A DNA stretch of 57,773 nucleotides. Origin: Heterotrichella gracilis (taxonomy: Eukaryota; Sar; Xanthophyceae; Tribonematales; Xanthonemataceae). The stretch lies in contig JAULBX010025674.1 of NCBI GenBank assembly GCA_032358255.1, forward strand, positions 1 to 57,773. The letters run 5' to 3'. A program made the position numbers and the translations under genes. The first letter of the stretch is position 1; every line of letters begins with the position of its first letter. Of this stretch, positions 45 to 33,300 are shown one piece after another. The notes below the pieces were generated by a model that was given only the letters and a program-made list of their open reading frames with translations, did not search any database and was not told the origin of the DNA.

Positions 45-3000
45 TCCACCGCGGTCGAGGGCGGCCCCCAGGCCACCTTTGTGCAGCAGAAGGTGCACGA
101 GCTCATGACGCAGCACCTGTCCCTGGCCTGCGACTCCAACAACGCGCTGCACACCAACGAGGCGCTGCTGCGCAGCCTGTCCTGCACCCTGGAGATCCTG
201 GCCACGCTGGCTGAAGTGGCGCCCGAGTACGTGCAGAAGTTCACGCCCACGCTGGTCAAGCTCATCAACCGGATCGCGCGCGACCACGCGTCGCCAGGCG
301 GGCTGGTGCTGGCGTCGCCAGCGGCCAAGGGGAGGAAGTGAGTTGTCGGGGGGGTTAGAGGATGGTATATGCAATGTCAGGACAGGGTTGAGTGGCGCAG
401 GCTTGTCAAGGCTGGCTGCTGGGATTTGGCTGTATCTTTGGAAAGGAATTCATGTTGCTACCTATACCCCTGCCAGGGCAGGCCTGAGCAGCGGCCATTA
501 TTGACCACCACCCTCTTCGCTTCAAACTCTAGATGCCAGACCCTAAACAACAAACCCTAACCCTTTGCAGGCCCCAGCGGCCCCGAGTACCCCACCCTCC
601 AGTCACCACCCACTTTCCCTTAAAACCCTAGATGCCAAACCCCAACCCCTACCCCCCCGCAGAACCGACGCCGATGGCGGCCCCGAGTATGCCACCCTCC
701 AGTTCATCACCCGCCTGGCGCTGCGCATCACCGCCGGCAGGGTGCTGGCCAACCCCGAGCTCAAGAAGATGTTCCTGCAGACACTGGTGCTGCTCATCAC
801 AGGTAGGCGTGGCAATGCCAGCAACCCTGAACCCTAAACCCTGCCTCTTGTCATCTGTACATTCTGCAACCGTTTGCCTCCAAACCACTGGCAAACGAAA
901 GCTCACGCTGTCAGAAGTCTGTGGCTGATTTTTCCATGTATGAACGGCGCAAGATCCTGCATGGTATGCCTTTTTGGAGGTGCGTTCCTGACGTGGGTTT
1001 TTGGTGCTGCTCGTCACAGGCAATGCGGCGCGCCACACCGACGCGCACATACTGCTGGAGATCCTGACCATTGTCCGGGATTGGCTGCTGGCGCCCGAAC
1101 CCCAGCCGGGGGCGGGGCTGACTGTGAAGGAGGCGGTGCTGTTTTTGCAGCGCCTGGCGGGGCTTGACCGCATCGGGGCCACTGAGGGCGCTGTGAAGGA
1201 GGAGTGGGAGGGCATCTTCCTGGACATGCTGTACAGGCTGTGCAGCAAGAAGGACGCGCCGCAGGTGTGGGGGAGGGAGGGGGGTGAAAGGAGGAGGGTG
1301 TTTTCTTGCCAGGCGCGGTGCATACGCGGGGTTGCATGGCAGAGGATTGTGACCACCCTAGTGCAAATCCGAGCCCTACACAAAACCCTCCAGGGCCATG
1401 CTCACCATAACCCTATCAAACCCTACATCCCCCTCCCCTTGGCGCGCCATGTTGAACTGCAAAATTTGACACCTTTTCACCACTCAGGGCGATGCCCTTG
1501 CCAGCGAGCCTCTCGGCCCCTCGGAGCGCATGCTCATCCCCACCCAAACCCTACCGGAACTTAGCTCTAAACCCTCCACCCAACCCTCACAGAACGACCT
1601 GCTCTTACCATAACCCTGACTTCTCTCCACTCCTTCCCCCCCGCAGAACGACGCGCTTGCCGGCGAGGTGTTTGACCGCGTTGAGCGCATGTTCATGCTG
1701 GGCGTGAAGGCGCGCGACCCCGCTGTGCGCGCCAAGTTCTTTGCGCTGTACAACGCCGCCACCCCCCCCAGCCTGCACGAGCGCCTCAAGTACATCGTGA
1801 CTGGGCAGGAGTGGGAGCACGTGGCGCACACCTTCTGGCTCAAGCAGGCGCTGGTAGGGCTTGCGGCAGGGTTTTGGCCAGGGTTTGCGCAGAGTTTGTG
1901 GTGTGCGTTCGCCAAATGAGCACCCCTTACACCGCATATGCATGCACACACACCATCTCCCCCACAGGTTCTCCTCCCTGCCACCCTGGTCTTGAAACCC
2001 TAAACCCTACACCCTACACCCCGCAGGACCTGCTCCTGGCCACCCTGGTGCTGAACGAGCCCATCACCCTTGCGCCAAACAGCGCCCAGCTCCCCTGCCT
2101 GCTGGCCAGCACACGCCCAGCGGTGTTCAGCCCACCCAGGGAACAGGCGGTGGCGGCGGCAGTGGTCGCAGGCGTGGCGCCGCTGCCTGCTATACGGGTG
2201 GCGGTGCCTCCCGGGGGTGGGGCGGCGGTGGATGGTGGCGCGGCAGGTGGGTGGTGGGGCCGGTGTTGGGCGGCGATTTGTTGTGTTGATGAGGGGGAGG
2301 GGCGGCAGCAGGATTAATCTAGGTGGTGGTTGTGGCTGCAGTGGGTATTGGAGGCTAGAGGGCAGCTAGAGGGCAAATCCCTCAGGGTACCTGGTATTCG
2401 CCACAGGCTGTTGTGGTTGGATTTCCCTCCCGTTCATTGCTGCGTGTGGCTTCCAGGTGATGCTGCCCCCGCCCTTGCCGCTGTCGCCAGCACCTCTGGC
2501 GCGCCACCCATCGCCGGTCCAGAGGATGGCGCTGCGGGTGCGTCAGCGCAGCATGGGGGTGCTGTGAAACTAGAAGCAGGGGAGGAGGCCACCCCTGTGC
2601 AGCAGCAGGTCAAGGTGGAGGGTGAGCCAGGGGGGGGACCAGGCGTGGTCGCACAGGGGGTGAAAATCGAGGATGCGGCCATGCCGGATGCCCCGCCCGC
2701 CGCCGACCCCGCAAGCACACCCCAAGGGGAGGCGCAGCCGGTGGTGGGGGTAAAGGAGGAGGAAGGCACCGCCGCCACCCCCGCCCCACCCGCCGCCGCA
2801 CCCCACGTCGGTGACGCCGTAGGCACCCCACCGGCTGCCGCCGCCGCGCCCACCCCACCCCCCGCCTCCACCCCACCCAGGCCCACCTTCTCTGGGGTCG
2901 CCCTCCCCGACAGCATGGCCACCCTGCTGCAGAACCACGCGCAGTTCCTGGAGGCCTCTGGCCACCTGCGGGTGCACCACCTGCTGGACAGCATGCGCGA

Positions 3001-6000
3001 GGTTGCGCACCACGACGCCTACGTGGCGCAGCACCTGTGGGTGCTTGTGTTCCCCATCGTGTGGGCCAGCCTGCAGAAGGAGCAGCAGATCCAACTGGCC
3101 AAGCCCATCATCGGGCTGCTGTCCAAGGAGCACCACATGCGCCAGGCCAGCATGCGGCCAAACGTGGTGCAGGTGGGGGCCGGGGCAAGGGGTGGTAGTG
3201 GCGGCGGTGGTGGTGGTGGTGGTGGTGGTGGTGGTGGTGGTGGTGGTGGTGGTGGTGGTGGTGGTGGTGGAGCGGGTGGCGTTGTTGTTGTTGGGTGTGC
3301 AGCTTGCTCCCCGGCTCTGTCTTGGCACTACCATTCTGAGTATGCATAATGGGAAGGGCTAGCACCTTGCATCCACCAGTACCTCACTTGACCCTCCTCT
3401 CTCCCCCGCAGGCGCTGCTTGAGGCCATCAGCCTGAGCCAGCCCCAGCCCAAGATCCCCTCGGAGCTGGTCAAGTTCCTGGGCAGGACATTCAACGCCTG
3501 GTACATCGCCATACCGCTGCTAGAGAGCCACGTCACGCTGTTCCCGCAGGTAACCCTAAACCCTACACCCTAAACGTCACGCTGTTCCCGCAGGTGAGCG
3601 GTGGCATGCCGATGGGTTTTGTATGGTAAATTGTGGATTTTTTGCTCCATGGTGTGCGGTGGTTCAATGGAATGGGTTTCGTCTGGTGAAATGTGTTTTG
3701 TTGCTCCATGGGGTGTGGTGGTTCAATGAAACCACGCGCTTGCTCCGAACCCCCACCACTACCCCACCACAACAATGCAGGATACTCGGTGCGTTATGGA
3801 GCTGGCTGCCCTGTACACCCCTCTCCATGTACTTTGGCCAATACCCTAATCAAAACCCTAATGACACCTCTCACCTCCCTCTCTGACCTGCTTTTGCTCC
3901 AAACCCTGCACGGAAACCCTATAACCTAACCTCAACCCCCCACGCCACCCCCACCTGCAGGAGACTCGGTGCTTTGACGGCCTCGCCGACCTGTACACCT
4001 CCCTGTCTGAGGACGACATGCTGTGCGGGCTGTGGCGCCGCCGCTGCGCCACCGACGAGACGCGGCTGGGCCTTGCGCAGGTGCAGCACGGCAACCACGA
4101 GGCTGCGCAGGCAATCTTCCTGGAGGCAATGCGCAAGAGCTTGAATGGGGGCTTTGCGCAGTGTGAGTGGGGTGAAGTTGCTGTGCCGTGGGTTGGGGTG
4201 TGTGCAGTGTGTGCGTGGGGTTGGAGCTGCCCTGGTTGGGGGTGCTGTATGACCATGCACATGATTGTGGCAGGTGCTGGCCATATGCTTTTGCCCTTGC
4301 CCCTCTCGCCCGTCCTTGGTGGGGATTCTCAAGGGCAGCCTCAAGGGCGAGATGGGCATGTTAGACGAAAGTTGTGTATGCCCCACCCCCCACACCCCTT
4401 CGCATGGACTCACTCACTTCCCTTCCCCTCTCCCCAGCCGGCATCCTCAAGGGCGAGATGTGCATGTGGGAGGCGCAACACCTCAAGTGCTGCAGCGAGC
4501 TGTGCCAGTGGGACGTGGTGGCAGACACTGCGCGCCAGAGCGACAACTACGGGGTGCTTGCTGACGCCCTGTGGAAGCTGCAGGACTGGTCCAGCCTCAA
4601 GGGGGAGGCGCTGCCAAAGGCGCAGGTGGGTGGGGGTGGGGTAATAGGGTTTTAATTAGGGTGGTGGGCTGGTTTAGTGTGCAGGAAAGGTGGTGCTAAA
4701 CATGCATGATTTCCCGTACTGCCCATGATAAATACAGCTAACACCCCCATTGCTGGAGTGCATGCAAGTATCCGTGCACCCCCCCGCCTTCCCATGCAAT
4801 AACCCACCACCTCCCATCCTTCCAGGTTGAGGACTCCCCCTGCCTGTCCATGCTGCGTGCCAAGGTGACCCTGTACGAGGGCGACGTCATGGGTGGGGAC
4901 AGGCTGGTGTCGGCGGGCTGCCAGCAGGCGCTGCAGAGGTGGTGGGCGCTGCCAGAGGTGGGTAGGGGGAGGGGATGGTGTGCGGGGTGGTGGTGGGGGT
5001 TGGTGCCAGCAGGGCTGCGGAGTTGGTGGCTGCTTGGTGCTAGGGTGGTGGCTCTTGGGGTGGGGTTGGGGTGGGGTTGCCAATGAGTGCACATGGCACC
5101 AGCGTCTGCAGCAAGGGGGCAGACAGGAATGCCTGAATGTTCAATGAGTGGAATCAGGTGCTGCCGTATGCAGTAATGTGCGCTGGATTATATGCCGGAG
5201 TCTTGCTGGAGTGGGGGCCCTAAGTGTGGCGCAGGGCCGCACATGTGGCGAAGGGCCTAAGGACGTTTGTGTGTGCTCCCTACGCAGGTTGGCATCGGTC
5301 CCCAGCTTGGCCTGCTGCAGCAGTTCCAGCAGCTGGTTGAGCTCCAGGAGAGCACGCGCATACTGGTGGACCTGGGGCTGGGGGCGGGGGGCAGGGACAG
5401 GACAGACCACCAGTTCGGGGACCTAAAGGTGGGGGCGGGGGTGCAGGGTAAAACGGTGCAAGTGAATTGGCCCCAGGGCTGCGGGTACTATAAATTGTGC
5501 GCCGCCGATATGCACAGCCACATCCCACCAAAACCCTACCAAGATGTCCATATAACCCTACCAACTCCTTCCCTCCCATCAGGAGGGCATCCTGGAGACC
5601 TGGTGCCTGCACACGCTCTACTAAAACCCTGCCTCAACCCTACCAAACCCTACAACAAAACCCTACCAAAAAAACTACCACACTCTACCCGCAGGACATC
5701 CTTGAGACCTGGCGCCTGCGCACGCCCAACGACTCCGACTCGGTGCGCCACTGGTCGGATGTGCTGCTGTGGCGCAACTTCATCTTCAACGTCACCATCA
5801 ACGCGTTCGAGCACTCGGCCGACCCCGGCCTGACTCAGCTAGGGTTTAGGGATAAGGCCTGGAGCGTGAACCGGCTGGGCAACATCGCGCGCAGGCAGGG
5901 CCACTACGATGTGTGCGTGCGGGTGGTCAACACGCTGTATGGGTACAACGCCATGGAGGTGTCGGAGGCGTTCAACAAGATCAAGGAGCAGGTGGGGGGG

Positions 6001-9000
6001 CGGGGCCTGGGCCCTAGACCCTTAACCCTAGGCCCTGAAAACCCTAGACCTAGCTTAAACACAAACCCCTGGACCGGCACATAAAAAAGACCTAGAACCA
6101 ATTAAAAAGACTGATAACATGCCCATGTCTATTTACTCTATCCTGTAAGACAATTCACGAGTCACAAGCACAATTAGTCACAATGCTACCATGCCCCCCC
6201 CCGCCGACCTCACCTCACCATTCCCCTTTCCCCCCCGCAGGCCAAGGCCTTTTTGCCTCAGCCCCAGGAGCGGCTGGCTGGCCTCAACCTGATCAACACC
6301 ACCAACCTGGACTACTTCCCGCACCAGCTGCAGGCGGAGCTGTTCCACCTCAAGGCAATGTTCCTGCAGGTAGGGGGGACCTGCACCCTGCAGTCTAACC
6401 CTACAACATGCAACAATACCCTTAAACCTTTGGAATTGTTTTCTGCACCAGCTGACATTTAAGGCTTGCGGGTAGGGTGTGCCTTGGAATCCATGCTTCA
6501 ACCCTCTCCTTCTCCACCTGATTCCAAGATGCATGCCATTTTTAGTAGTAGTAGATACTTAACCTTCCTTCCCACTCGACGAAATTCGACCCTGCACCGC
6601 TGGCATCACCCTGTGCGTAAGCCCAAACCCTACACCTGAATCTCACCCCCACCGCTGCACAGGCCCTGAAGGAGCCCGACGCCGCCTCCTCCGCCTTCTC
6701 CACCTCCCTCACGCTGTGCGCCACGCTGCCCGAGGCCTGGGTGTCGTGGGGCGCGCACTGCGATGCGCAGTTTGAGGAGACGGGGCGCACCAGCGCCACC
6801 TGGCTGGAGTATGCGGTGTCTTGCTACCTGCAGGTGGGGTGGGGTGGTGGATGTTTGGTGGGTATTCGGTGGGTGGTGGTGGGTAGAGGTCGGCCTGCGG
6901 CGACCTGTCTCCATCCAGGTGTTGTGATGGGGTTCTTCTGGCAGATAGACCTCCACACCAGCCCAGCCTGCGGGCAAGAGCTCTTCGACAAACCCTGAAC
7001 CCTAAAATCCTACTGCAGGGAGTGCGCCTCAACTCTTGAGCCCGCCGGCAAGATCCTCCCCTTATAACTTTAAAACCCTAAAACCCTAAACCCTGCTGCA
7101 GGGCGTGCGCCTCAACTCCGAGCCTGCCCGCAAAATGCTGCCGCGCGTGCTGTACCTGCTGTCCTTCCACAATGACAGCGGCACAGTGGGCGCTGCGCTG
7201 GACAAGGCCACCGACATCCCCGTGTGGGTGTGGCTGCCCTGGATCCCGCATATGCTGACCAGCCTGCAGCAGGCGGAGGCGCCGCACGTGAAGAAGATCC
7301 TGGTGCAGCTGGCGACCGCGTACCCGCAGGTGGTTTGGTGGGGGTTGGGGGGTGATGAGAGGGTACTAGTGCTGCTGGCAGCGGCCATATGTAAGGGTTG
7401 GGGTTGGGTATGGATGGGCTGTGACAGGTTTGCTGCAGGCGGTGGCTGCATTGCCAACCCGCACCTTACTCCTACGTCAACCCTTCACGATTGCCCCGAT
7501 TGACAAACCATGTGTATTGTTGCATGTTGCATATAATCATGCATACATACATGCGTGGCCCCAACGGGATGCATCCACCGATATCATCATGCCCTCCTTT
7601 CAGCTCTTATCCATGCCCGCCCCTCGTGTGGCAGATACCTGCGCACCATTCTCATTCCCTCCCTGTTTTCTCCTCCCCGCAGGCCATCTACTACCCCCTG
7701 CGCACCTTCCTCCTGTCCCTGCGGGACAACGCCGTCAAGGCGGTGCAGGAAGCGGCGCGTGCGTCGGCGGTCAAGGGGGGGGATCCGAAGAAGCAGACAC
7801 CCCCCTTGGCGCCACGGCCCTCGGCAGCCAAGGCGGCTGCGGCTGAGGGGGTGCGTGGCAGGGGGGAGGTGGAGGAGTGGGGATTGCATTGATCATGTGA
7901 CATGACTATTGGTTCATGTCTGAATTCGCTGCTGGGTGGTGGGGGTGGGGTGCCAGCGGTGTGCATGTGCTTGTGGGAAGGACCGGTAAGCTTATAAGCC
8001 CTGTAAGACCCCTGACCAATACCCTTCTTGCTGTACCACAGGCGGCTGCACCAGACGGCCCCAAACCCGAGGGTGCGGCCCCGGAGAGCTCCACCCCACG
8101 CGCAGCCACCCCACCAGCCAGTGAGGACACCCCCATGGCGGAGGTGGCAGCGGCCGGTGGTGGTGAGGAGGGGGCAGCACCCAGCGCTGCAGCGGAGGGT
8201 GCTGGTGCTGGGACATCTGGTGGTGGTGGTGGTGGGGAGGCGGCGGCAGCGGGAGGGGAGGGGACCGGCGCACCAGGTAGGGTTCGGCACCATTGGGGTG
8301 TCTGTTGCTTATAAGTTTCTGCCAAAGGGTTTGAAGGTGTGTGCATCACTACGACTGCCAATACAGCTGTCGGGCACCGCAAAACATGCATCACCATTCT
8401 CAGCAGCTTGCCACCCAAAACCGCATAAGTTGGCTGCCACCCACCCCTCACCCACCCCAACCCACCCCTCAGGCGCGCCGCCCGCCACCCCCGCCGCCAC
8501 CCCCGCCCCCGAGCCCGCCCCTTCTCCCCGCTCCAATGAGAAGCCCCAGGAGGTGATTGCATTCGAGGCAGGCAAGGAGGTGATTGAGCAGCTGCGCCTG
8601 AAGCACCAGCCAGTGGCGGCTGTGCTTGAGCTGGTCCTCACTGACCTGGGGTCAAGGTTTGTGCCTCGGGCTGAGGAGCGGCTGCTGGCGGTGGTGCACG
8701 CGCTGCTGCACAGGTGAGGAGGGTTTTCGTAGGGTTTTGGTTAGGGTTTTGGGGTGGTGGGTGTGTAGGGTTTGTGCCCTGGGCGTTGGAGCGGCTGCTG
8801 GCGGTGGTGCACGCACTGCTGCACAGGTGAGGAGGGGGTTTGGGTAGGGTTTTGGGTAGGGTTCCGGGGTGGTGGGTGTGTAGGGGTTTGTGCTCCGGTG
8901 TGTGGAGCGGCTGCTGGCGGTGGTGCACGCGCTGCTGCACAGGTGAGGAGGGGGTTGGGTAGGATTTGGTGGTGGTAGTTGCGAAGGGTGTTGGTGGTGG

Positions 9001-12000
9001 TTGCGAAGGGTTTTTGCCAAGGTTGTGGGCAGGGTTGGAAGGCGGTGGTGATAGGTGTGTAGGGTTTGCTGTGAAGGTTGCAGGATTTGAACGCAGGAGC
9101 CGCTGCGCACTCTATCCCTGCGTGCTTGCGCCTCCCCTCTTGCCACTTCTTATCAAGCTCCCCCCCCCTTCCAACCATAACCCCCCCCACTCCACCCCCA
9201 CCCCCCCAGGTGCTACAAGCTGTAGGGTTGAGAAGAAGGCGGCTTTAAACCCTAAAATCCCTCCTAGCCCTTAACCCTAAACTCCACCCCCACCCCTCCC
9301 AGGTGCTACAAGCTGCCCTTCTCCAACCAAGCCGAGGTGCCCGCCAGCCTGAAGAAGGAGCTCCAGGGGGTGTGCAAGGCGTGCTTCGACGCAGCGCCCC
9401 AGCAGCGGCACGGGCGCACAGTGGCGGAGTACCGGGACCAGTTCACTCGGGACCTGGACCCATCCTCCCCCGCCTTCCCCGCCACCCTGGGCCAGCTGGC
9501 GGGTCGCCTCAAGGCGTGGCGCATCACGCTGCAGAGCACCGTGGAGGACACCATGCCCGCCTGCCTGCGCCTGGAGGAGGAGAGCAAGTCGCTGATGGTG
9601 GGTGGTGGGGGTGGTGGGTGGGTGGGTGGGGTGTTGCAAAGCACTGTGAGGGGGGTACTGCCTGGCTGCCACAGGCTGGAGGGGAGAGTAAGGCGCTGAT
9701 GGTGGGTGGGGAGGGTGGGGTGCGGTGGTGGTGGAGGTGGAGGGGTTGGCTAGTGGGGTGTTGCAGAGCACTCTGAGGGGTATAATGCCTGCATGCGGCT
9801 GGAGGAGGAGAGGTTGGCGCCTTTGGGGGGTTGGGTGGTGGACAGTGTGTGTGTGTGTGTGTGTGTGTGGTTGGTGCTGGTGGTGGTGGGTGGTGTGGTA
9901 CGGTGACAGACGGTCTAAAGGTGGTGATGAACCAGTATGTGGTATGCGCCCTCCCCTCAACCCCCACCGTCCACTACACCCCCTCCCCCTCCCCCCCACT
10001 CCTCCCACAGGACGTGAACCTGTCTGACGTGGAGATGCCCGGCATGTACATGCTTGGCCACGAGCCGCTGCCCGACTCTGCGGTGTATGTGGAGCGCATC
10101 GGCAGCGACGTGGCGGTGGTACGGCGGCACGGCAACTCCTTCCGCCGCCTGGCCTTCCACGGCAGCGACGGGAGGGTGCGCTACTTCATCGTGCAGACGG
10201 GGCAGCACTACAGCGGCGGTGCGTGGCGGTGGGGGTTGCCCTAGTGGCGGGGACCTGTGCTCTGGTGGTGGGGATCTGAGTGAACCCTAATGGTGGTGGT
10301 GACTGTGGGAAGGACCTGACTGTCCGTCGTCCATGCGACGCCTGACCCCTATACTCTTCCACCCCTGCACCCGAACAGGCGCATGGCCTCCCTCCCAATC
10401 TTCCCCACTCCCCTCCACCCCTCTCCATTTTTTCTCCTCCTATACCTGAATGCATCACCTCACGCTCCCCCCCTCCCCCCTGCAGACGAGCGCGTGCTTG
10501 GGCTGGTGCGCATGCTCAACGCGCAGCTTGCCCGCCACACGCAGACCAGCAAGCGGCACCTGCGCTGGCACACGCCGCTCATCGTGCCCGTGTGGCCCCA
10601 GGTGAGGGTTTGCCTAGGGTGTGGCTAGGGTGTGGGTAGGGTTTCAGACCAGCTGTACCGCACATCGTGCCTGTGTGGCCCCAGTAAGGGTGTGGGTAGA
10701 CCAGCAGTACTGCCGTCGGGCCCGTGTAGCCATGTGCTCCCGAGAGGGGTTGGGTGTCAGCGTGTGGTTACACTAGGCTTGCGAGCTGGTGCTATGTGCT
10801 GCGTGTTGCACCACGCAGCTATATGTGCGCATGACTCGAGTGGCCCCCCACACCTACCTAGGGTCCTTCCTCCCCATGCTTACCCTAACTGTCCCAGGTC
10901 CGCCTGTTCGAGGAGGAGCCCTCATACACCACCTTTCGGCAAGGCCTACCTAGGGTTTTCGTTACCATACCCATACCTTAAGCTAGGGTTCTCCTCCCGC
11001 AGGTCCGCCTGGTTGAGGAGGAGCCCTCCTACACCACCTATGGGGAGGCCTACGAGGTGAACTGCCTGCGGTACGGGCGGGAGCCTGACCAGGCCATTGT
11101 GCACTTCAAGAAGCAGTGCTCCGCGCCCAACGGGCAGATCATCTCGGACCCCACGGGGGCGATGCGGCTGCAGGTGGGCCGCAGACCCTAAACCCTACAT
11201 GGGCAGATCACCTCGTGACCGTGCGGGGGCTGTTTGAACATGCCTTTCACAGAAGAGCAATTTGTAAGTAATCGACAATGAGAAATGTCTTCCTGACCCT
11301 CTTCTCAACCCTGCCTAAAACCCTGACCCATCACGTGGACCCAAATGCGCCCACTCCTCCCCCCCTTGCAGGCCTACCTTGAGGTTGAGAAGCACCACTT
11401 GACCGAGAACATGTTCAGCCAGTACATGTACAAGACCATGCCCACCTGCAACCACCTGTGGGTGTTCAAGAAGGAGTTCACCATGCAGAGCGCGCTGTCA
11501 GGTGTGGCAGCGCACAGAGAAACCCCTAAACCCTAACTCCAGATTGAGACCCTAGCTGAACCCTAGCCACATGGTACACGCGGCACGAAACCCTGTGCGC
11601 TCATGTGAGCACGCACTTGGACCGCCGGCAAGACCCGCCGCTGGGTGGGTTGGCAGGTGGCCCATGACGGGTTAATGCATTGGATTGCAGTCCGCTACTC
11701 GCAGGTGTGCAGTAGTACAGCCAAGGTAGCAGTCACCCTGGGGTGCAGCTCCCTCCTTACAGCTGCCTTCTGGTTGCCATGCCAAAAGCACTTAATTTGT
11801 CAGATCGTAGCGTTTACCCCCCTTTCCTCCCCTGCAGCCTCGCTGTGCTACATGCTCCTTGTGGGCGGGCGGGCCCCCAACAAGATCCTGTTTGCAAAGT
11901 CCTCCGGCAAGGTGTTCAACACAGAAGTGGTCCCGCTGTACGACTCCAAGGGGGTGCTGGAGCGGGTGGAGGCAGTGCCCTTCCGCCTCACGCGCAACAT

Positions 12001-13027
12001 GACCTCCTTTTTCACGCCCTTTGGGGTGGAGGGCATCTTCCTGCCGTCAATGGTGGCCACCGCTCAGGTGGGTGGGTGGCAGGGGTTAGGCTGGATGGGG
12101 CAGGCCTCTCTCAGGAAAATGTCAAAAAAAGTATGCCTGAATGGCGCCAAAACAGCCAAACCCATATCCCCAGCACTGCCTCCACATCCTCCTGTGTCCC
12201 ATGTGAGTGCACAGCGTCTCTCCCCCAAGCACACACCTCCCGGACACACCACGTGGCTCCAGGGGAACCCGCAAACCTGCTCGCTTTCCCCCCGCATTCC
12301 ATCATCTCCCCTACTCTCGCCACACGCCGATGCACCCATTCCCCCACACACCCACCCCACCCAACACCCCCACCCCTCACCGCAGGCCCTTCAGCAGCCG
12401 CACTCCAACGCTGCCGCGTGCCTGGCCATGTTCTACCGGGACGACCTCATCGTGTGGTCAAGCAGGCGCGCGGGGCGCAGCGGCGGGGTGGCGGGGGCCA
12501 GCGCAAGCGGGGTGATCAAGCGGGACGGGCTGCGCGCGCTGGTGCAGGCAAACGTGGACAAGACGCTGGACAGGATTGCACAGGTGCGGACCAGGGGTGT
12601 TGCTGCTGGCAGGCAGCCCCGTGCTTGTGTTGGTTGGGAGTTGGTCGGGAAGAGGGGTTGGGGTTTTGCTGCAGCTTGGGCAAATCTCCAGCTCAAGGTG
12701 GTGGAGGGTTGGGAGGGTGTGTGAGTGGACCCAGTAGAGGGCACGCACTAGCGGGTGCTGCCAACTCCGGCAGTGGATGGCGGCAGTGGTAAGGTGTGTG
12801 CCCATGTGGAACACCCCGTGTGCGCGTTTGTCCCTCCCGCCCCCACGTGCACTTTCCATACCTGACGCCTCACCCCCCTCTCTTCACCCTTGCAGATGGG
12901 CCCCCAGCCTACCGAGGAGGGTGCTCCTCCCGAGTCCATCCAGCGTGGTGCGGCTGCGCTCATGGGGCAGGCAACAGACCCGCGCAACCTGTGCAGGATG
13001 GACCCCACCTGGCAGCCCTGGTTCTGA
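45..13027 (+). CDS. TRA1: TRRAP/Tra1-type PIKK pseudokinase, 3' part (5' partial)
   Basis: This gene encodes the scaffold subunit that recruits SAGA and NuA4 histone acetyltransferases to activators in the nucleus. I read 26 exons whose phases agree throughout: 45-337, 663-802, 1020-1264, 1647-1853, 2027-2246, 2457-3172, 3412-3549, 3961-4162, 4438-4625, 4826-4957, 5288-5428, 5695-5991, 6241-6369, 6663-6833, 7102-7329, 7683-7850, 8042-8276, 8473-8713, 9303-9597, 10011-10218, 10486-10601, 11003-11173, 11372-11501, 11838-12067, 12386-12583, 12896-13027. They give about 1,856 residues. HEAT/FAT repeats come first (for example ADALWKLQDW in exon 9 and PHVKKILVQLATAYPQ in exon 15). A PI3K-like fold follows from exon 20 to exon 25, with VPFRLTRNM and FYRDDLIVW. 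The C terminus is FATC-like (NLCRMDPTWQPWF). I see no HxDxxxxN or DFG-type catalytic motif, as expected for TRRAP. Exons 6 and 16-18 contain Ala/Pro/Gly-rich inserts that the family usually lacks. The 5' end lies outside the window. Confidence 0.
521..710 (+). repeat. Exon-edge echo: start of TRRAP exon 663-802
   Basis: A unit made of intron end plus exon start occurs twice. The upstream copy has CTAGATGCCAGACCCTAAAC, then TTTGCAG, then a decayed copy of the exon start (570-607). The downstream copy has CTAGATGCCAAAC, then the real acceptor at 661-662 and the real exon. CCCTAAA-like units sit in both copies. Confidence 0.75.
803..1019 (+). other. Intron bounded by direct repeats of exon sequence
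   Basis: The exon sequence before the donor (784-802) and the intron end before the acceptor (1001-1019) are nearly identical over about 19 bases (GGTGCTGCTC followed by ATCACAG or GTCACAG). The base stretch GGCAATGC follows shortly after both. The intron is therefore framed by two copies of one segment that carries an AGGT, the arrangement predicted when an intron arises by tandem duplication of exon sequence. Confidence 0.75.
1484..1690 (+). repeat. Exon-edge echo: start of TRRAP exon 1647-1853
   Basis: At 1484-1535 an acceptor-like CACTCAG is followed by a diverged copy of the exon start, including the stretch that encodes ERM in the real exon (GAGCGCATG). A shorter fragment, CACAGAACGAC, lies at about 1587-1598. 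The true exon starts at 1647. Confidence 0.7.
1965..2060 (+). repeat. Exon-edge echo plus CCCTAAA run before TRRAP exon 2027-2246
   Basis: A copy of acceptor and exon start (CAGGTTCTCCTCCCTGCCAC, then CCTGGTCTTGAA) lies at 1966-1996. It is followed by CCCTAAACCCTACACCCTACAC and then the real acceptor and exon (CAGGACCTGCTCCTGGCCAC). The telomere-like stretch separates copy and original. Confidence 0.75.
3205..3271 (+). repeat. (GGT)n microsatellite in a TRRAP intron
   Basis: More than 20 consecutive GGT triplets follow the donor at 3173 within the intron between exons 2457-3172 and 3412-3549. It produces long poly-Val, poly-Gly, poly-Trp, poly-His or poly-Thr open frames that are not genes. 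Confidence 0.95.
3528..3600 (+). repeat. Duplicated exon end and donor with CCCTAAA spacer
   Basis: The 3' end of exon 3412-3549 and its donor (GTCACGCTGTTCCCGCAGGT) occur at 3531-3551 and again at 3576-3596. Between them lies TAACCCTAAACCCTACACCC. Using the second donor would read through an in-frame TAA at 3571-3573, so the first donor is the functional one. Confidence 0.85.
3770..3835 (+). repeat. Exon-edge echo: start of TRRAP exon 3961-4162
   Basis: ATGCAGGATACTCGGTGCGT and the following CTGTACACCC repeat, with changes, the real acceptor and exon start (CTGCAGGAGACTCGGTGC and CTGTACACCT). Several CCCTAAT/CCCTATAA-like units lie between echo and exon. Confidence 0.7.
4318..4362 (+). repeat. 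Exon-edge echo: start of TRRAP exon 4438-4625
   Basis: GGGATTCTCAAGGGCAGC followed by CTCAAGGGCGAGATGGGCAT copies, with a small internal duplication, the real exon start GGCATCCTCAAGGGCGAGAT. The echo ends about 75 bases before the true exon. Confidence 0.7.
5580..5694 (+). repeat. Exon-edge echo and CCCTA-rich spacer before TRRAP exon 5695-5991
   Basis: TCAGGAGGGCATCCTGGAGA and the following bases copy the real acceptor and exon start (GCAGGACATCCTTGAGACCT). Read in the exon's frame, the copy runs into TAA after CACACGCTCTAC. About 60 bases of CCCTA units (AAACCCTGCCTCAACCCTAC and similar) separate it from the true acceptor. Confidence 0.75.
5840..5851 (+). repeat. Telomere-like TAGGGTTTAGGG inside a coding exon
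   Basis: Two G-strand telomere-like units lie in frame in TRRAP exon 5695-5991 and are read as part of LTQLGFRDK. The exon stays open, so the short insertion is tolerated in the protein. Confidence 0.7.
6940..7101 (+). repeat. Exon-edge echo and CCCTAAA array before TRRAP exon 7102-7329
   Basis: CTGCAGGGAGTGCGCCTCAA at 7013-7032 mirrors the real CTGCAGGGCGTGCGCCTCAA at 7096-7115. The echo has a TGA in the exon's frame directly after. AAAACCCTAAAACCCTAAAC (7071-7091) lies between them, and further CCCTGAACCCTAAA precedes the echo. Confidence 0.85.
8658..8955 (+). repeat. Triple copy of exon end, donor and G-strand telomere-like intron start
   Basis: The last ~56 bases of exon 8473-8713, its donor and the first ~50 intron bases are repeated three times with periods of 113 and 116 bases; donors are at 8714, 8827 and 8943. 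Each copy has GTGAGGAGGG; the first two then have GTAGGGTTTTGG-like G-strand telomeric units. The first donor keeps the frame; reading past it gives TGA at once. Confidence 0.9.
9205..9302 (+). repeat. Exon-edge echo and CCCTAAA array before TRRAP exon 9303-9597
   Basis: CCCAGGTGCTACAAGCTG occurs at 9207-9224 and again at the real acceptor (about 9299-9316). In the exon's frame the upstream copy is followed immediately by TAG. AAACCCTAAAATCCC and TTAACCCTAAAC lie between the copies. Confidence 0.85.
9525..9835 (+). repeat. Triple copy of the 3' part of TRRAP exon 9303-9597
   Basis: The segment that starts near CAGAGCACCGTGGAGGACAC and runs to the donor GTGGGTGG recurs in degraded form at about 9638-9705 (AAAGCACTGTGAGGG, then GGCGCTGATGGTGGGTGG) and about 9762-9825 (GAGCACTCTGAGGGG, then CTGGAGGAGGAGAG). 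The copies lie in the downstream intron. Confidence 0.8.
9845..9869 (+). repeat. (GT)n microsatellite
   Basis: About twelve GT units lie in the intron before exon 10011-10218. Confidence 0.95.
10578..10740 (+). repeat. Copies of the end of TRRAP exon 10486-10601 with G-strand telomere-like units
   Basis: The exon end ATCGTGCCCGTGTGGCCCCA recurs as ATCGTGCCTGTGTGGCCCCA (10665-10684) and more loosely as GTCGGGCCCGTGTAGCC (10715-10731). The intervening DNA carries GGGTTTGCCTAGGGTGTGG and GGGTAGGGTTTC. Confidence 0.8.
10895..11035 (+). repeat. Exon-edge echo: start of TRRAP exon 11003-11173
   Basis: CCCAGGTCCGCCTGTTCGAG with about 45 further bases, ending near GGCAAGGCCTAC, copies the real CGCAGGTCCGCCTGGTTGAG and its continuation ending GAGGCCTACG. 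CTAGGGTTTTCG and CTAGGGTTCTCC flank it. Confidence 0.85.
11095..11230 (+). repeat. Copy of the end of TRRAP exon 11003-11173
   Basis: After the donor at 11174 and ACCCTAAACCCTAC, the bases GGGCAGATCACCTCGTGACC copy the exon's GGGCAGATCATCTCGGACCC; the resemblance continues to GGGGGC. Confidence 0.75.
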
Positions 13028-13115
13028 GCGGGCCAGGCGGGTGGGGGGTGGGGGCCGATGGGACGCGGCGATTGTGTTGTGGGATGTGGAGACCCCCTGG
13101 CAGCCGTGGATCAGA
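13000..13115 (+). repeat. Copy of the TRRAP 3' terminus after the stop codon
   Basis: The end of the coding region (CCTGGCAGCCCTGGTTCTGA type) is followed about 75 bases later by GACCCCCTGGCAGCCGTGGA. The second copy carries no stop at the corresponding place and lies in the presumed 3' UTR. Confidence 0.55.
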
Positions 13116-17183: not shown

Positions 17184-19165
17184 GCACATGCAGAGCGGCG
17201 GCATGGGGATGGGGATGGGGATGAGCGGCAGCTTGGGGATGGGAAATTCAACGGCGGGCATACTCGTACAGCAGATGTCCATCCCCGGGACCCAGGGCCA
17301 GCTCCCGACTGACCCCCGCCGCAGGCCGGCGCAGCAGCGCAGCAGCAGTTTGCCTCGTGCGTTCCCGGGCCCGGGCTCAGCAGGAGGGCAGTTCCAGGGG
17401 GGCTATGCACAGGTGGGTGTGCGGGGAGGACGGCACCGTGGGGCCTAACAAAAGCACCTAACACATGCTAATATTTTATTGTTTCACCTGTACCTTCTGG
17501 CTCCACACAGAGCCATGTGGTATGTTGTCCTGTTGCCGTGTGCAAGTGTTTTGAATGCTGGCATGATGTACAAGTGAAACTTACATACCTTGTCGAGATG
17601 TAGTGCAGGGCAGCATCTATACACTATGATTTAATGCCAGTCCATACTCGTGCTTTCGTCACAGCGTGTAAGATTGCATGCAAGCCACCACAGCCCTGTC
17701 TCCTTCTCACCAAGCAGCCCCTTACACCCGCAGAATTTGGAAAGCAGCGCCATGAGCGGAGGCGCATCCCAGGGGCCCGCCTCCACCGGCTCACCAGCCA
17801 ACCCACCCTCCTTGGGACAGGCTGGAACACCGCACTCTGTGGGCCAAGCTGGGGCCACGCAGTCCCCCGGCCTCACCCGCAACCTCCAACACCTGCAGCT
17901 GCAGCGCTCGGTGTCCCAGGGGCGCTCCTCCGATTCCCCGGGGATGGAGGTTGCCTCCAACGCGGGCCCCGGGGATTTGGCCCCCGTGGTGCAGCAGCGC
18001 CTGGTGCAGCTGATGATGGAGCGGGACAAGGCGACCAACCTGCTGGAGGTGGCCAGGGAGCTGCTGGAGGTGAGGAAACCCTAAACCTAAAACCCTAAAC
18101 CCTCAACAGAGCGGGACACGGCCACCAACCTGTTGCCAGGGAGCTGCTGGAGGTGAGGAAACCCTAAACCCGACACCCTATTGGGCAAGCCCTGTAACCC
18201 TGGCGGGGAAACCCCTGGAACCCTGGTTGCAGGCAATGCAGCAGTGCACCCACATTACCAGCCAGTTTTCAATAGTTTGCGTTCCCCAGCTCCGCCTGCC
18301 ATCACACCCACTTTCCCTACATGACCTACGCGTGATTCCTCTCCCCTGCCCATTCACCCCCTCCCCCTCCGTGGCTTGCAGAAACACTACACCCTGAACG
18401 CTGCACTCAAGTTCAACGCTGACGAGGCCAAGAAGAAGTGCCAGCTGTCGGACTCTGCTCTCACCAGGGCGCTCAACCTGCTGGGATGCAACGCGTGCAA
18501 GATGGTGAGGCGGGGATCTAAGCATGAAAGAAAGGAAGGGGACCCCACAGAGGCGGAGTTAGGGGACCACTGGCTCGAACCAGTGCATCGCAACCAGCCA
18601 GAATGGTGTAGACATTTGCATGCGCTGCCCAGATGTGGACATAATGTGCAGGGTGTGTAGGGAAGGGTACATCGTGCATGCAGTGCACGTTGTGATGCAT
18701 GCATGTTCATGAGGGTTCCATGTGGTGCATCTAGGTTCTCTGTAATACACATAGGGTCACGTGTTTTACCTCAAGGTAGGGTTACGTGCAGTTCTTGGCA
18801 AGAATCTTCGATTCATTGCACAGCCGTCTGTGAAAGCCAACCACCACCCTAGGCGGCAGCATCGCAGTCCACGCCTTCCAACCACAACCACCCCAATAAG
18901 CGTGAGGGTTGGTGTTTATGAAGAATTCTTCATTACGATAATTGCATGTATTGATATGCATATGCAAGCCCCATGCCCTCGCCCCTCCCTCCTCACCCAT
19001 GCCCCATTTACTCCCCTGCAGAAAAAGCGGTGCATGCTCTTCCTCCCCTGCAACCACATGACCCTGTGCAAAGACTGCAGTGAGGCAGCCCTCACCATCG
19101 AGCCCAACTGCCCCACATGCCACAAGGAGGTCACAGCAAAGCATGAGGCCAGGTATGCCACCTAA
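14921..19165 (+). CDS. C3HC4 RING-finger protein with long Gln/Met/Gly-rich middle region
   Basis: This is a probable E3 ubiquitin ligase. Seven exons agree in phase: 14921-14983, 15193-15719, 16123-16225, 16513-17412, 17734-18069, 18382-18504, 19022-19165, giving 731 residues. The start is the ATG at 14921 (MQSGPPPNDGNPWD). The middle is low-complexity: a basic stretch (KSRRRAA), repeated MG units, a run of about 11 Gln, and Ser/Pro-rich parts. Before the RING a short helix-rich segment contains VQQRLVQLMMERDKATNLL. The RING at residues ~679-720 has the spacing C-x2-C-x11-C-x-H-x3-C-x2-C-x10-C-x2-C. Only eight ligands are visible, a C3HC4 type like BOI/XIAP-class RINGs. The protein ends soon after the RING. 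An intron divides the RING after CNACKM, exactly as in the neighbouring gene at 22463-24337. Substrates cannot be inferred. Confidence 0.85.
16870..16897 (+). repeat. Met-Gly coding minisatellite
   Basis: GGGATG units repeat within the RING gene's large exon and encode MGMGMGMG. A second array of the same unit lies at about 17200-17245. Poly-Gln from CAG/CAA triplets is at 17150-17184. Confidence 0.9.
18044..18180 (+). repeat. Copy of RING-gene exon end with CCCTAAA array
   Basis: The end of exon 17734-18069 and its donor (GAGCGGGACAAGGCGACC to GAGCTGCTGGAGGTGAGGAA) recur at 18107-18162 with a small internal deletion. AAACCTAAAACCCTAAACCC separates the copies, and another AACCCTAAACCC follows the second. 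This shows the exon-edge pattern is not confined to the TRRAP gene. Confidence 0.85.
18540..18605 (-). repeat. Dispersed repeat, copy 1 (in RING-gene intron)
   Basis: On the minus strand it reads CACTGGTTCGAGCCAGTGGT, then CCCCTAACTCCGCCTCTGTG. The same core is found at 20441-20645, 20701-20897, 22670-22745 and 35850-35950. GGTTCGAGCC resembles a Pol III B box, and the opposite strand has GGCGGAGTTAGG, which resembles an A box. A tRNA-derived SINE is possible but the spacing between the boxes is too short for a proven case. Confidence 0.6.
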
Positions 19166-30387: not shown

Positions 30388-33300
30388 ATGGAGGCTGTTG
30401 TCAGCAACGGGAGCAAACAGTCACCCAGTGCAGACGGGCCAGTTCCGGGATGGATGAACAACCTACTGGGCTGCGCCTTCTTCTCATCATGTGAGACCCA
30501 CTGCCACAGCAAGAAGAATGAGGTGCGCGCAAGCAACACAACACCGTAGCTCTGCAAGGGGTTCTGAAGTGACGAATGCCGGGGGCAGCGGCCAAAGTCA
30601 GTTGGCAAAGCCACGATGGCGGAAAAGGGTCCATTGGGTTCCAAAAGCGATGCACCCCAAACTTCGAAATTGTACGCAATTGCACCAGCGTTCGCACACG
30701 GCGCCCATGCACGACGGCGACGGTCGTTGCAACCTGCGAAGTCACCCTATCCTTGCCACACAACACGGCAGCTACAGGAGTTCTGGCCATTGCACCCCAC
30801 CCGCGGTGCAGCGGGCGGACGTCACGTGCCTGATCGCTGGCGGGATCCCCCGCGTTTTGTGTGCCCCTATTCCTTGTACTAGCGGGTGCTGCAACACGAT
30901 TCGCTCATTTTTACAGTTAGTGCCGTAAAGCTGTGAGGCGGCCATCCTGCCGTTCAGCATTGCCAAGGACTCAGTGTACCGAGTCGTACCAGACTGCTAG
31001 CCATATTAGGCACAAATGTCTGCCAACGTTGGGGGTGTGCTTATGCGATACGTGTGCGTTTTGACACCCGCTGCGCCCACCGGCACCCTTCCAGTACCAC
31101 CACCTCCAGGCACACGTATTGAACAGGGCCAGGTCTCTGTGATACTCCTTGGCTGGTACTCTGAGGATTGCTGGTACTGGCCAACCACAGTACTACTACC
31201 CAGCTCTTGGTGGCCTGGCCCTTGTCACCTCTCCAGACACTTTCCTCTCCCACTACCTCCTCACCAACCCCCGCACCCCCCTGCCCTGCAGAAAGTCTAC
31301 TTCTGCACCACCTGTGGTGAGCCAGGCTCCCTGTGCCCACACTGCAAGGAGGATGAGCACGCACAGCATCACCTCATACAGGTACCGCCCGCATACACTG
31401 GGAACCCTACAAACCCTACAGTAACCCTGGAAACCCTATAGACACTGGCAACCCCTTCACCCAAACTGCCGTGCAACAGTGGTATATATTACCCGCCTTG
31501 TGTGGCTGCCATGCTCATGCCACCATGTATCAAACTCAACACCCCAAAAGCCATACCGCAATGCCACTCATACCTTGCTCGTGGCACCACAGTCAAACCC
31601 TGCTCTCCACGCCAAGCTCTGCGTCCCAGCAGCTTAACCTTAACATCATTTACCCTGCTCGTTACCCTAACAGGCTTACTTTGAACCTTGCACAGCACAC
31701 CAACACACCACCCCTCTGGCACAAGCATGCTGCAACCCCTGCACCCTACACCACACCACCATTCCTGCAACACCGCACCCCAAAATTACCAAATCCCACC
31801 CGGCCCCCCTCAACCCCAAACCACCAACGCGCACCCTCCCTGGCCCCCCGCAGATCCGGCGCTACGTGTACCGCGACGTGGTCAAGACATCCGACCTGGA
31901 GCCCTTCACCAACGTGGATGGCATCCAGCGCTACTACGTGAATGGCGCCAACGTGGTGCTGGTGAAGAGCCCCAGCCGGCAGGAGAAGAAGGCGGGGCGC
32001 AAGGGCGACCTGTGCCTCTACTGCAGCTTCAGGACGCAGAAGGACACGCAGTTCTGCTGCCTGTCCTGCAAGGTGAGGGCAGTGCTTGGGCACAAATGTG
32101 TGTGGATGCGGGTCCAGGTGAAACGGGGTCAGAACAACAGATGAAAATCTCGCCACACCCCGCAGGAGGGGTGTTCACTACTATTTTCTATACTATTGTG
32201 TTTTCTACTATTTCTTACTACTATACTTCCAGTATACAATTGTGCGTCCACTTTTACTGGCCAAAATCGAAGTTGAGATTTCCCTCCCCCTGCAGATGTA
32301 CTACGTGCAGCAGTTTGGCCCCCCGCCTCCCAAAGCGACCTCCCCTACCAGCTCGCTGTCGCCCACCCCTGGTGTCCTGGCCAACAGCGGCTCTCCAGTC
32401 CTCAGCCCCCGCCTCGGGAAGGGCAGTCACAAGCGCAAGATCAAGCAAGAGGAGCCAGCCGCAGACGACAACCTGCTGGTGCAGGACCTGCAGGAGGCGG
32501 TGTATGGCATGGTGCGTGGCCTCTGTGTGCGAAGGGCTGCCTATTGGTCTGGCTACCTTGCTAAAATGCATGTAACATGCGTGTAACATGCATGAATTGA
32601 CTAAGAACTTACTGTAGTGGAGTCTGTGCGTGTGATGTGTGTTTTCGTTATAATTGCTGGGGCCAGTGCGGTCCCAGGGAGCTGTGCTAGCCGCGCGTCC
32701 TCCAGCTGCCGCTAACCCCGACCCTAAACTCTTTAACAGTCTGATGGCCCCCCTTGCAGGGCACATGCCCCCTCATCCTGGGCTACTGAACGCCACCCCT
32801 AAACACTCTGCTATTCCCCCCTTGCAGGGCACAGGGCCCCTCCTGCTGCAGGGTGGATCCTACTCCGATGCCCACCCCCAGTCATCGGGGACCGCCTCCT
32901 TCCCCTCCATGCAACCCCAGGGATCCCAGGACCTGCTGATCGCCGCGGCAGCCAAGGACATCCTGTTTGATGAGACGATGGGCATGGGCAGGCAGGGCAG
33001 CGTGAGCGATGTAGCAGTGCAGTCAGCGACCCACCAGCTCACCAAGATCCTGAACCAGGACCCGCAGCTGATGCAGGTGGGGTGGGGGAAAAAACCCTTG
33101 CTAGGGTTTGCAATGGCAACAACGGGAGAACTATCTGTGACATTAGACATGAAAGCAAGGGGAAGCTTGCAGCTGCAGCAGGAGCGTGTTGTGTGACGGT
33201 GTGGGCGGCAGCTGTCAGTCCCGCAGCAGGCTAGGTACTGCTGGGCGCCCTTGTTGTCATCGTAACTGTGCCCGCAGCATGCATGCATGTACCGCACCAC

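What the first reader, a model, noticed from the sequence alone, without database searches (positions are those of the whole stretch)
338..13115. Systematic exon-edge echoes: decayed tandem copies of exon/intron junctions throughout one gene
At least thirteen TRRAP exon edges have one to three degraded copies in the neighbouring intron, each including the splice site; the same is seen in the RING, PLATZ and G8 genes. Copies occur at both acceptor and donor sides, and most of those I read in frame carry stops. A tandem duplication that spans a junction leaves the protein unchanged because the extra copy is spliced out. Duplications inside exons would be lost, so a general short-duplication process would be visible only at junctions. 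I know of no standard name for this pattern at such density.
Basis: partly seen in the sequence, partly recalled or inferred. Interest (0 to 1): 0.9.

Follow-up and report, generated by a model that had tools for sequence, protein, structure and literature searches.

The report
Exon edges repeatedly copied into introns
In this alga-like genome short stretches spanning an exon's edge have been duplicated again and again, so the neighbouring intron keeps a decaying copy, and this is seen at exon edges far more than in other neutral DNA, which points to a duplication hotspot and a way introns can grow.

Summary
In TRRAP, 13 of 48 exon edges have a same-strand copy in their own intron; 0 of 48 reverse-complement queries do. 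Across 278 kb, 44 of 552 edges have one against 0.54 expected from swapped introns; exon interiors give 0-3% at a looser cut-off. Ten of the 44 keep full-length tandem copies, whose intron parts differ twice as much as their exon parts (24.5% vs 12.0%), as one frozen and one drifting copy predict. So these are small tandem duplications across the junction; the extra copy is spliced out and decays. The idea of a general process visible only at junctions fails: uniform neutral duplication predicts 34-52 copies in intron interiors and intergenic DNA, and 6 are seen beside 39 at junctions (stricter count 27). Edges with copies more often carry telomere-like heptamers (25 of 44 vs 91 of 508; stratified OR 6.4). 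Best reading: exon edges are hotspots of break-repair tandem duplication. Enzyme and cause of the telomere link are not shown. Closest precedent: one potato gene (PMC4974935).

The parts
577..611 (+). acceptor-side copy of exon 663-802 edge (score 27); full tandem similarity 506-611 vs 604-712
784..802 (+). upstream exon tail repeated in register at the intron's own 3' end (1001-1019): Rogers-type signature, the only clear case in 276 introns
1001..1019 (+). intron 3' end matching upstream exon tail 784-802
1490..1537 (+). acceptor-side copy of exon 1647-1853 edge (score 20)
1971..2008 (+). weak acceptor-side copy of exon 2027-2246 edge (score 17, below the threshold used for counts)
3574..3593 (+). 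donor-side copy of exon 3412-3549 edge (score 20, 20/20 identical)
3781..3824 (+). acceptor-side copy of exon 3961-4162 edge (score 21); the retrained gene finder called it an exon (3781-3828), which I removed by hand
4334..4361 (+). acceptor-side copy of exon 4438-4625 edge (score 24)
4985..5034 (+). donor-side copy of exon 4826-4957 edge (score 25)
5588..5621 (+). acceptor-side copy of exon 5695-5991 edge (score 24), followed by degenerate AAACCCT repeats
7019..7060 (+). acceptor-side copy of exon 7102-7329 edge (score 25); tandem unit about 83 nt
8769..8826 (+). first donor-side copy of exon 8473-8713 edge (score 46)
8885..8942 (+). second donor-side copy of exon 8473-8713 edge (score 48)
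9659..9701 (+). donor-side copy of exon 9303-9597 edge (score 25)
9787..9812 (+). second donor-side copy of exon 9303-9597 edge (score 22)
10658..10684 (+). donor-side copy of exon 10486-10601 edge (score 23)
10898..10949 (+). acceptor-side copy of exon 11003-11173 edge (score 37)
11193..11230 (+). donor-side copy of exon 11003-11173 edge (score 20)
18109..18152 (+). donor-side copy of the exon ending at 18069 in the RING-type gene (score 30), with identical donor GTGAGGAAACCC
32728..32780 (+). acceptor-side copy of 32795-32848 (exon begins at 32828) in the B-box/PLATZ-like gene (score 29)
54599..54664 (-). donor-side copy of the exon edge at 54827 (original 54814-54879) in the reverse-strand gene, 61 of 66 identical, 149 nt from the original

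Best explanation
Exon edges in this genome are hotspots of small tandem duplication (offset 63-394 nt, median 113). A break at or near an intron edge is repaired so that some tens of exonic nt (27-74, 10th-90th percentile) plus the adjoining intron edge are copied side by side. If the copy next to the exon body still has a complete splice site, the protein does not change: the outer copy is spliced out as part of a longer intron and then decays without selection. SHOWN: same-strand, side-specific, edge-specific copies far above chance; contiguous tandem copies in a subset; a 2:1 intron:exon divergence; longer introns; a clear excess over intron-interior and intergenic duplications; association with telomere-like heptamers at the same edge. 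INFERRED: which copy is spliced (from protein conservation, no RNA data); that the events are break-repair fill-in (paired nicks or staggered breaks filled by Pol alpha-primase/CST, or theta-type joining); that telomere-like or G-run sequence at intron edges promotes them.
For: 44 of 552 edges vs 0.54 expected by intron swap; reverse-complement controls 0.4-0.9% and exon interiors 0-2.9% at score >=16 against 9.2% at edges; wrong-side controls 0.4-0.7% at >=16. Contiguous tandem units overlapping by 3-8 nt in three well-delimited pairs and 10-17 nt apart in four. Substitutions 43/358 in exon parts vs 154/628 in intron parts, ratio 2.04, pooled over 10 full-length pairs. Introns with a copy are longer, median 348 (n=37) vs 275 (n=239), p=4e-5. 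Mismatch by codon position 0.129/0.106/0.175; 38 of 39 indels break the frame. 0 of 23 acceptor copies leave under 35 nt of intron before the real exon (minimum 39), against 4 of 21 donor copies (Fisher p=0.044): a working acceptor seems to be required. In RtcB (L021) three copies that the gene finder called as exons (scores 40, 46 and 16) are 7-, 18- and 10-residue insertions against a PDB RtcB chain, so the inner copy is the real exon. Class counts 39 junction (27 strictly one boundary), 5 intron, 1 intergenic, 2 exon, 2 gene end vs 21-33 intron and 13-20 intergenic expected. Telomere-like heptamer 25/44 vs 91/508, CMH OR 6.4, p=2.5e-8; G/C-run skew z 2.8 in a joint model.
Against: 28 of 44 echo pairs have 38-317 nt of non-alignable sequence between the copies, so decay, later insertion or a non-tandem mechanism is needed for those; one young pair (54108-54826) is 61 of 66 identical yet 149 nt apart. 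One of the ten full-length pairs has more divergence in the exon part than in the intron part (6834). 19 of 44 echo edges lack a telomere-like heptamer. On the donor side the C-strand motif is enriched more than the G-strand motif, which does not fit a simple 3'-overhang CST model. Stop- and start-codon edges give 3 of 69 against 5.5 expected at the splice-edge rate, so splice-site targeting is not separated from exon targeting. 12 of the 39 junction hits touch several boundaries. Introns come from a self-trained gene finder, checked by homology in two genes only.
Confidence: 0.65

Rival explanations
1. One reading: tandem duplications arise uniformly; exonic ones are purged, so the visible ones straddle junctions.
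For: Exon-internal hits are 2 after array removal, as many as in the shuffled control, and a frozen exon keeps copies readable for longer.
Against: Predicts 21-33 intron-internal and 13-20 intergenic copies; 5 and 1 seen. Among pairs with identity >=0.8 the counts are 11 junction, 3 intron, 1 intergenic (binomial p=0.003 by target size).
Confidence: 0.12
2. Selection keeps junction copies because they help splicing (backup or decoy splice sites).
For: Excess at junctions; 17 of 20 register-testable acceptor copies keep AG.
Against: AG positions are as conserved as the adjoining exon part (0.85 each vs a mean of about 0.84), GT is kept in only 8 of 15, and divergence follows the neutral 2:1 expectation.
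Confidence: 0.1
3. Telomerase-marked break repair: telomeric repeats are added at a staggered break whose filled-in ends become the two copies, so the telomere-like tract between copies is filler from the same event.
For: TTTAGGG arrays lie at the very start of contigs C70 and C140. Inter-copy gaps hold 20.6 C-strand and 4.8 G-strand heptamers per kb against 10.4 and 1.9 beyond the copies. Telomeric insertion at breaks with flanking duplication is reported in mammals (10 of 155 cases in a table passage of PMC2246262).
Against: The motif is densest inside the duplicated intron part itself (39.8 per kb), so it often predates the duplication. The C-strand bias at 3' ends may just reflect what splicing tolerates.
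Confidence: 0.15
4. Intron gain by tandem duplication of an AGGT-containing exon segment (Rogers model).
For: Intron 803-1019 fits: upstream exon tail and intron tail match in register with run score 16; scores >=12 occur in 0.0001 of swapped pairs.
Against: It is the only intron of 276 with a run score >=8, where about 0.7 is expected by chance; the rest are copies of existing junctions.
Confidence: 0.02
5. Duplicated alternative exons.
For: Some copies keep an open frame and were called as exons by the gene finder.
Against: Copies cover only one exon edge, 38 of 39 indels break the frame, and mismatches are only mildly higher at third positions; the RtcB copies are insertions in a protein otherwise aligned nearly end to end.
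Confidence: 0.02
6. Assembly artefact (unmerged haplotypes or mis-joins).
For: Reads were not available.
Against: Copies differ by 0-35% in their exon parts with a 2:1 intron:exon pattern, and occur in the window and in 11 of 11 sampled contigs other than C1.
Confidence: 0.03

Closest known systems
Potato RdRp junction-crossing tandem duplication (Ma, Lan and Niu 2016, PMC4974935; abstract and passages read)
   Same: A tandem duplication crosses an intron-exon boundary and the splice signals of the copy are inherited.
   Different: One gene, one event, and a new intron was made with a cryptic donor; here the copy is swallowed by the existing intron, at 44 of 552 edges.
Small tandem duplications from CST-guided Pol alpha-primase fill-in at breaks (PMC8355091; passages read), and the rice and plant work it cites (Vaughn and Bennetzen 2014, Schiml 2016; reference entries only)
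   Same: Small tandem duplications at breaks with protruding ends; CST is a telomere complex, which fits the telomere-motif link.
   Different: No preference for exon edges or telomere-like sequence appeared in the passages I read; enzyme dependence cannot be tested here.
Rogers 1989 / Gao and Lynch 2009 tandem-duplication intron gain (known here through passages of PMC4974935 and PMC2891723)
   Same: Tandem duplication plus splicing hides the extra copy.
   Different: That model makes a new intron from exonic AGGT; here existing introns grow (1 of 276 introns fits the Rogers pattern).
Repair-mediated duplications in vertebrates (Pace 2009, PMC2671141; passages read)
   Same: Short local copies, some including splice sites or partial exon/intron sequence.
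   Different: That study removed tandem cases; by its Table 2 as shown, donors were mostly intronic and 4 were partial exon/intron.
Interstitial telomeric repeats inserted at breaks (Nergadze 2007, PMC2246262; passages read)
   Same: Telomeric sequence at break-repair sites, sometimes with flank duplication.
   Different: No exon-edge preference in the passages read; the order of events here is unknown.

Membership tests
Small tandem duplication (break repair type) | two adjacent same-strand copies, unit tens to hundreds of nt | tested here: met
   met in 10 of 44 echo edges (similarity covers 0.8-1.35 of the offset with >=15 nt on each side); offsets 63-394, median 113; 28 of 44 have gaps of 38-317 nt between alignable copies
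Small tandem duplication (break repair type) | short or no microhomology at the boundary | tested here: inconclusive
   copies overlap by 3-8 nt in three well-delimited pairs and are 10-17 nt apart in four others; most are too old to fix breakpoints
Small tandem duplication (break repair type) | dependence on CST/Pol alpha, Ku or Pol theta | not testable with these tools
   needs mutants
Rogers-type intron gain | intron 3' end matches upstream exon tail in register | tested here: not met
   1 of 276 introns at run score >=8
Duplicated alternative exon | whole exon copied, frame kept, coding constraint | tested here: not met
   partial copies; 38 of 39 indels frame-breaking; mismatch 0.129/0.106/0.175 by codon position
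Introner-like element | one sequence family shared between unrelated introns | tested here: not met
   exon edges hardly match other introns: 0.00099 of swapped edges at score >=18; introns were not compared with each other directly
Telomeric repeat insertion at breaks | telomeric repeats present at the event site | tested here: met
   met in 25 of 44 echo edges vs 91 of 508 others; CMH p=2.5e-8
Telomeric repeat insertion at breaks | repeats absent before the event and inserted by it | tested here: inconclusive
   motif both between copies and inside the duplicated unit; needs sister species

The most novel reading that the evidence does not exclude
Telomere-like and G-run sequences that sit at intron edges in this lineage make exon edges fragile. 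Breaks there are filled in by the telomere machinery (CST with Pol alpha-primase, or telomerase-associated repair), which repeatedly copies the exon-intron junction outward. Introns thus grow from their edges, and each conserved exon acts as a frozen reference against which old duplication events can be dated.
Probability: 0.25. Interest if true: 0.82.

Novelty: new variant of a known kind. Interest (0 to 1): 0.64.

Why it matters
It shows a way introns lengthen that leaves the protein untouched, and it gives a datable record of short tandem duplications, because one copy is held still by selection. The excess at exon edges over other neutral DNA implies a mutational hotspot tied to gene structure, and its link with telomere-like sequence is testable. 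It also matters in practice: such copies were called as exons by the gene finder in RtcB and, I judge, in TRRAP.

Tried and rejected
Uniform neutral duplication was simulated under six settings of age, indel share and exon constraint and did not give the class ratio. Reverse complements, swapped introns, exon interiors and wrong-side edges were at or near chance; the upstream exon interiors were slightly above it (3 of 102 at score >=16 in each of two segments, 0.4-0.9% in swaps). Alternative exons and splice-site retention were tested by codon position, indels and AG/GT register. Telomere motif as pure filler between copies is not clean, since the unit itself holds the motif. Stop/start-codon edges: 3 of 69, which does not separate splice-edge from exon-edge targeting. 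An attempt to name the alga by assembly size in the literature gave nothing useful. No related eukaryote genome was at hand, so orthologous introns could not be compared.

Rows dropped: contig C1 (20 kb, bacterial genes) was used in the first gene-finder training and left out of all counts. Of 436 predicted introns, 276 passed the filter (both exons >=60 nt, length 80-1500). Of 65 self-similarity hits scoring >=26, 16 array-like ones were removed before the class count. For the two per-gene counts I removed predicted exons by hand: in TRRAP 3781-3828, 9210-9221, 9675-9714, 9767-9885 and those after 12583, judged by size and likeness to the neighbouring edge and partly by recalled TRRAP sequence; in RtcB the three that are insertions. 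The 1971-2008 copy (score 17) is not counted. Telomere heptamer sets: 8 words, 14 words (densities).
Full report
SETTING. The window is a whole contig (C316) of an unnamed 68.5 Mb, 903-contig assembly. TTTAGGG arrays lie at the very start of contigs C70 and C140. Sample: the window plus eleven 20 kb stretches from C2-C12 (278 kb). A self-trained splice-aware HMM gave 436 introns; 276 passed the filter (both exons >=60 nt, intron 80-1500 nt).

OBSERVATION. The first 60 nt of the downstream exon, or the last 60 nt of the upstream exon, were aligned to the body of their own intron. In the first set (229 introns), 9.2% of either edge score >=16, against 0.4% (downstream) and 0.7% (upstream) in swapped introns and 0.4% and 0.9% for reverse complements; segments 61-180 nt inside exons give 0-2.9%. 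In the final set 44 of 552 edges score >=18, against 0.54 expected by swap, in 37 of 276 introns. Looking on the wrong side of the intron gives 0.4-0.7% at >=16. For TRRAP (PDB chain 9caf_D, E=5.3e-120) 13 of 48 edges score >=18; for RtcB on L021 (E=4.6e-248) 9 of 20 do. In both genes I removed false exons by hand first (see Tried and rejected). Density differs between genes more than chance (dispersion p=0.001): of 39 multi-exon models with scored introns, 22 have no echo edge, 8 have one and 9 have two or more. TRRAP and RtcB are at the high end, so their rates must not be taken as the genome's; 44 of 552 is the fairer figure.

ANATOMY. Copies are partial: exonic part 27-74 nt (10th-90th percentile), offset 63-394 nt, median 113. 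The search started from a 60-nt query, which may favour short exonic parts. In well-preserved pairs the two copies are contiguous, overlapping by 3-8 nt (L025, L021, L031) or 10-17 nt apart (window 6990 and 18019, L013, L031); but 28 of 44 pairs have 38-317 nt of non-alignable sequence between copies. In ten pairs covering 0.8-1.35 of the offset, substitutions are 43/358 in the exon part and 154/628 in the intron part, ratio 2.04, with one pair (6834) the other way round. That is what is expected if the exon copy is held by selection and everything else drifts. Introns with a copy are longer (median 348 vs 275). No acceptor copy of 23 leaves under 35 nt of intron in front of the real exon (minimum 39), while 4 of 21 donor copies do (minimum 3; Fisher p=0.044); a junction placed uniformly in the unit would give 35%. 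The natural reading, on modest numbers, is that only duplications which leave a complete acceptor survive.

NEUTRAL DECAY. Mismatch by codon position is 0.129, 0.106 and 0.175 (they differ, p=0.002; the third-position excess fits silent change in the exon itself); 38 of 39 indels break the frame; in-register stops occur in 2 of 44. AG is kept in 17 of 20 and GT in 8 of 15 register-testable copies, no better than the adjoining sequence. In RtcB the gene finder took three copies for exons; against the PDB chain they are insertions of 7, 18 and 10 residues.

CONCENTRATION AT EDGES. A scan for all local tandem similarity (offset 25-400) gave 65 hits scoring >=26 against 7 in a dinucleotide-preserving local shuffle. 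After removing 16 array-like hits, 39 overlap an exon-intron boundary (27 exactly one, 12 several), 5 are inside introns, 1 is intergenic, 2 are inside exons and 2 are at gene ends; 3 shuffled hits remain, 1 junction and 2 exon. Simulated neutral tandem duplications of the same sizes, placed uniformly and allowed to decay, predict 21-33 intron and 13-20 intergenic hits for 39 junction hits under six settings. The chance of 6 or fewer when 34 are expected is 4e-9; with only the 27 strict hits 23.5 are expected and the chance is 2e-5 (Poisson) or 7e-4 (binomial). For pairs with identity >=0.8 the counts are 11, 3 and 1 (p=0.003). The simulation assumes the same neutral rate in introns and copies, which the 2.04 ratio supports. 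Stop- and start-codon edges show 3 of 69, 5.5 expected at the splice-edge rate, so the hotspot may be exon edges in general.

TELOMERE-LIKE SEQUENCE. Heptamers of TTTAGGG/CCCTAAA are 4.7 times commoner in introns than an order-3 model predicts (479 vs 102), concentrated in the first and last third of introns. They lie within 150 nt of 25 of 44 echo edges but of only 91 of 508 other edges; stratified by locus the odds ratio is 6.4, p=2.5e-8. In a joint model the motif (z 4.7), intron length (z 4.0) and G/C-run skew (z 2.8) all contribute; length is partly a consequence of the copy. C-strand density is highest inside the duplicated intron part (39.8 per kb), then between copies (20.6), then beyond them (10.4), so the motif often predates the duplication, and cause and effect are open.

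MECHANISM. In the passages I read, small tandem duplications at breaks are made in mouse and human cells by CST-guided Pol alpha-primase fill-in, with theta-mediated joining as a back-up that uses microhomology (PMC8355091). CST is a telomere complex, which would fit the motif link. Against a simple form of this: on the donor side the C-strand motif is enriched more than the G-strand motif. I therefore commit to break-repair tandem duplication concentrated at exon edges and leave the enzyme open.

PRECEDENT. A potato RdRp gene has one tandem duplication across an intron-exon boundary (abstract and passages of PMC4974935). Pace 2009 reports repair-mediated duplications including splice sites but removed tandem ones (passages). 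Lehmann 2010 and the Rogers model concern new introns (passages); one of 276 introns here (803-1019) has that signature. Six searches listed no report of many exon edges copied in one genome; I saw the listings only, capped at 20, 20, 20, 7, 12 and 5 rows, and the library lacks most subscription journals.

Noticed in passing
G000 contig C1, 100,001-120,000 (L009, L010): The largest contig seen (894,458 bp) has GC 0.33-0.36, long uninterrupted ORFs and bacterial-type domains in 3 of 4 ORFs tested (TonB receptor plug, histidine kinase, SpoIIE): probably a co-assembled bacterium.
   Followed up: partly
276 introns of the window and of L011-L032: Telomere-like heptamers at intron edges with polarity: AAACCCT 2.04 per kb in the last third against AGGGTTT 0.20, both about 1.1-1.2 in the first third, 0.3-0.4 in the middle. 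Possibly a splicing signal or scars of break repair.
   Followed up: partly
276 introns of the window and of L011-L032: Base skew along introns: G 0.31 in the first third, C 0.33 in the last third.
   Followed up: no
window 803-1019: Intron whose 3' end repeats the upstream exon tail in register (CTGGTGCTGCTCATCACAG / TTGGTGCTGCTCGTCACAG): candidate intron gain by tandem duplication.
   Followed up: partly
window 54599-54664 and 54814-54879: Nearly identical copies (61 of 66) separated by 149 nt of non-alignable sequence: a spaced, not contiguous, junction copy.
   Followed up: partly
G000, 209 exact four-unit TTTAGGG matches (overlapping matches counted; only the first places listed): Many of the listed telomeric arrays lie tens of kb inside contigs.
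   Followed up: no
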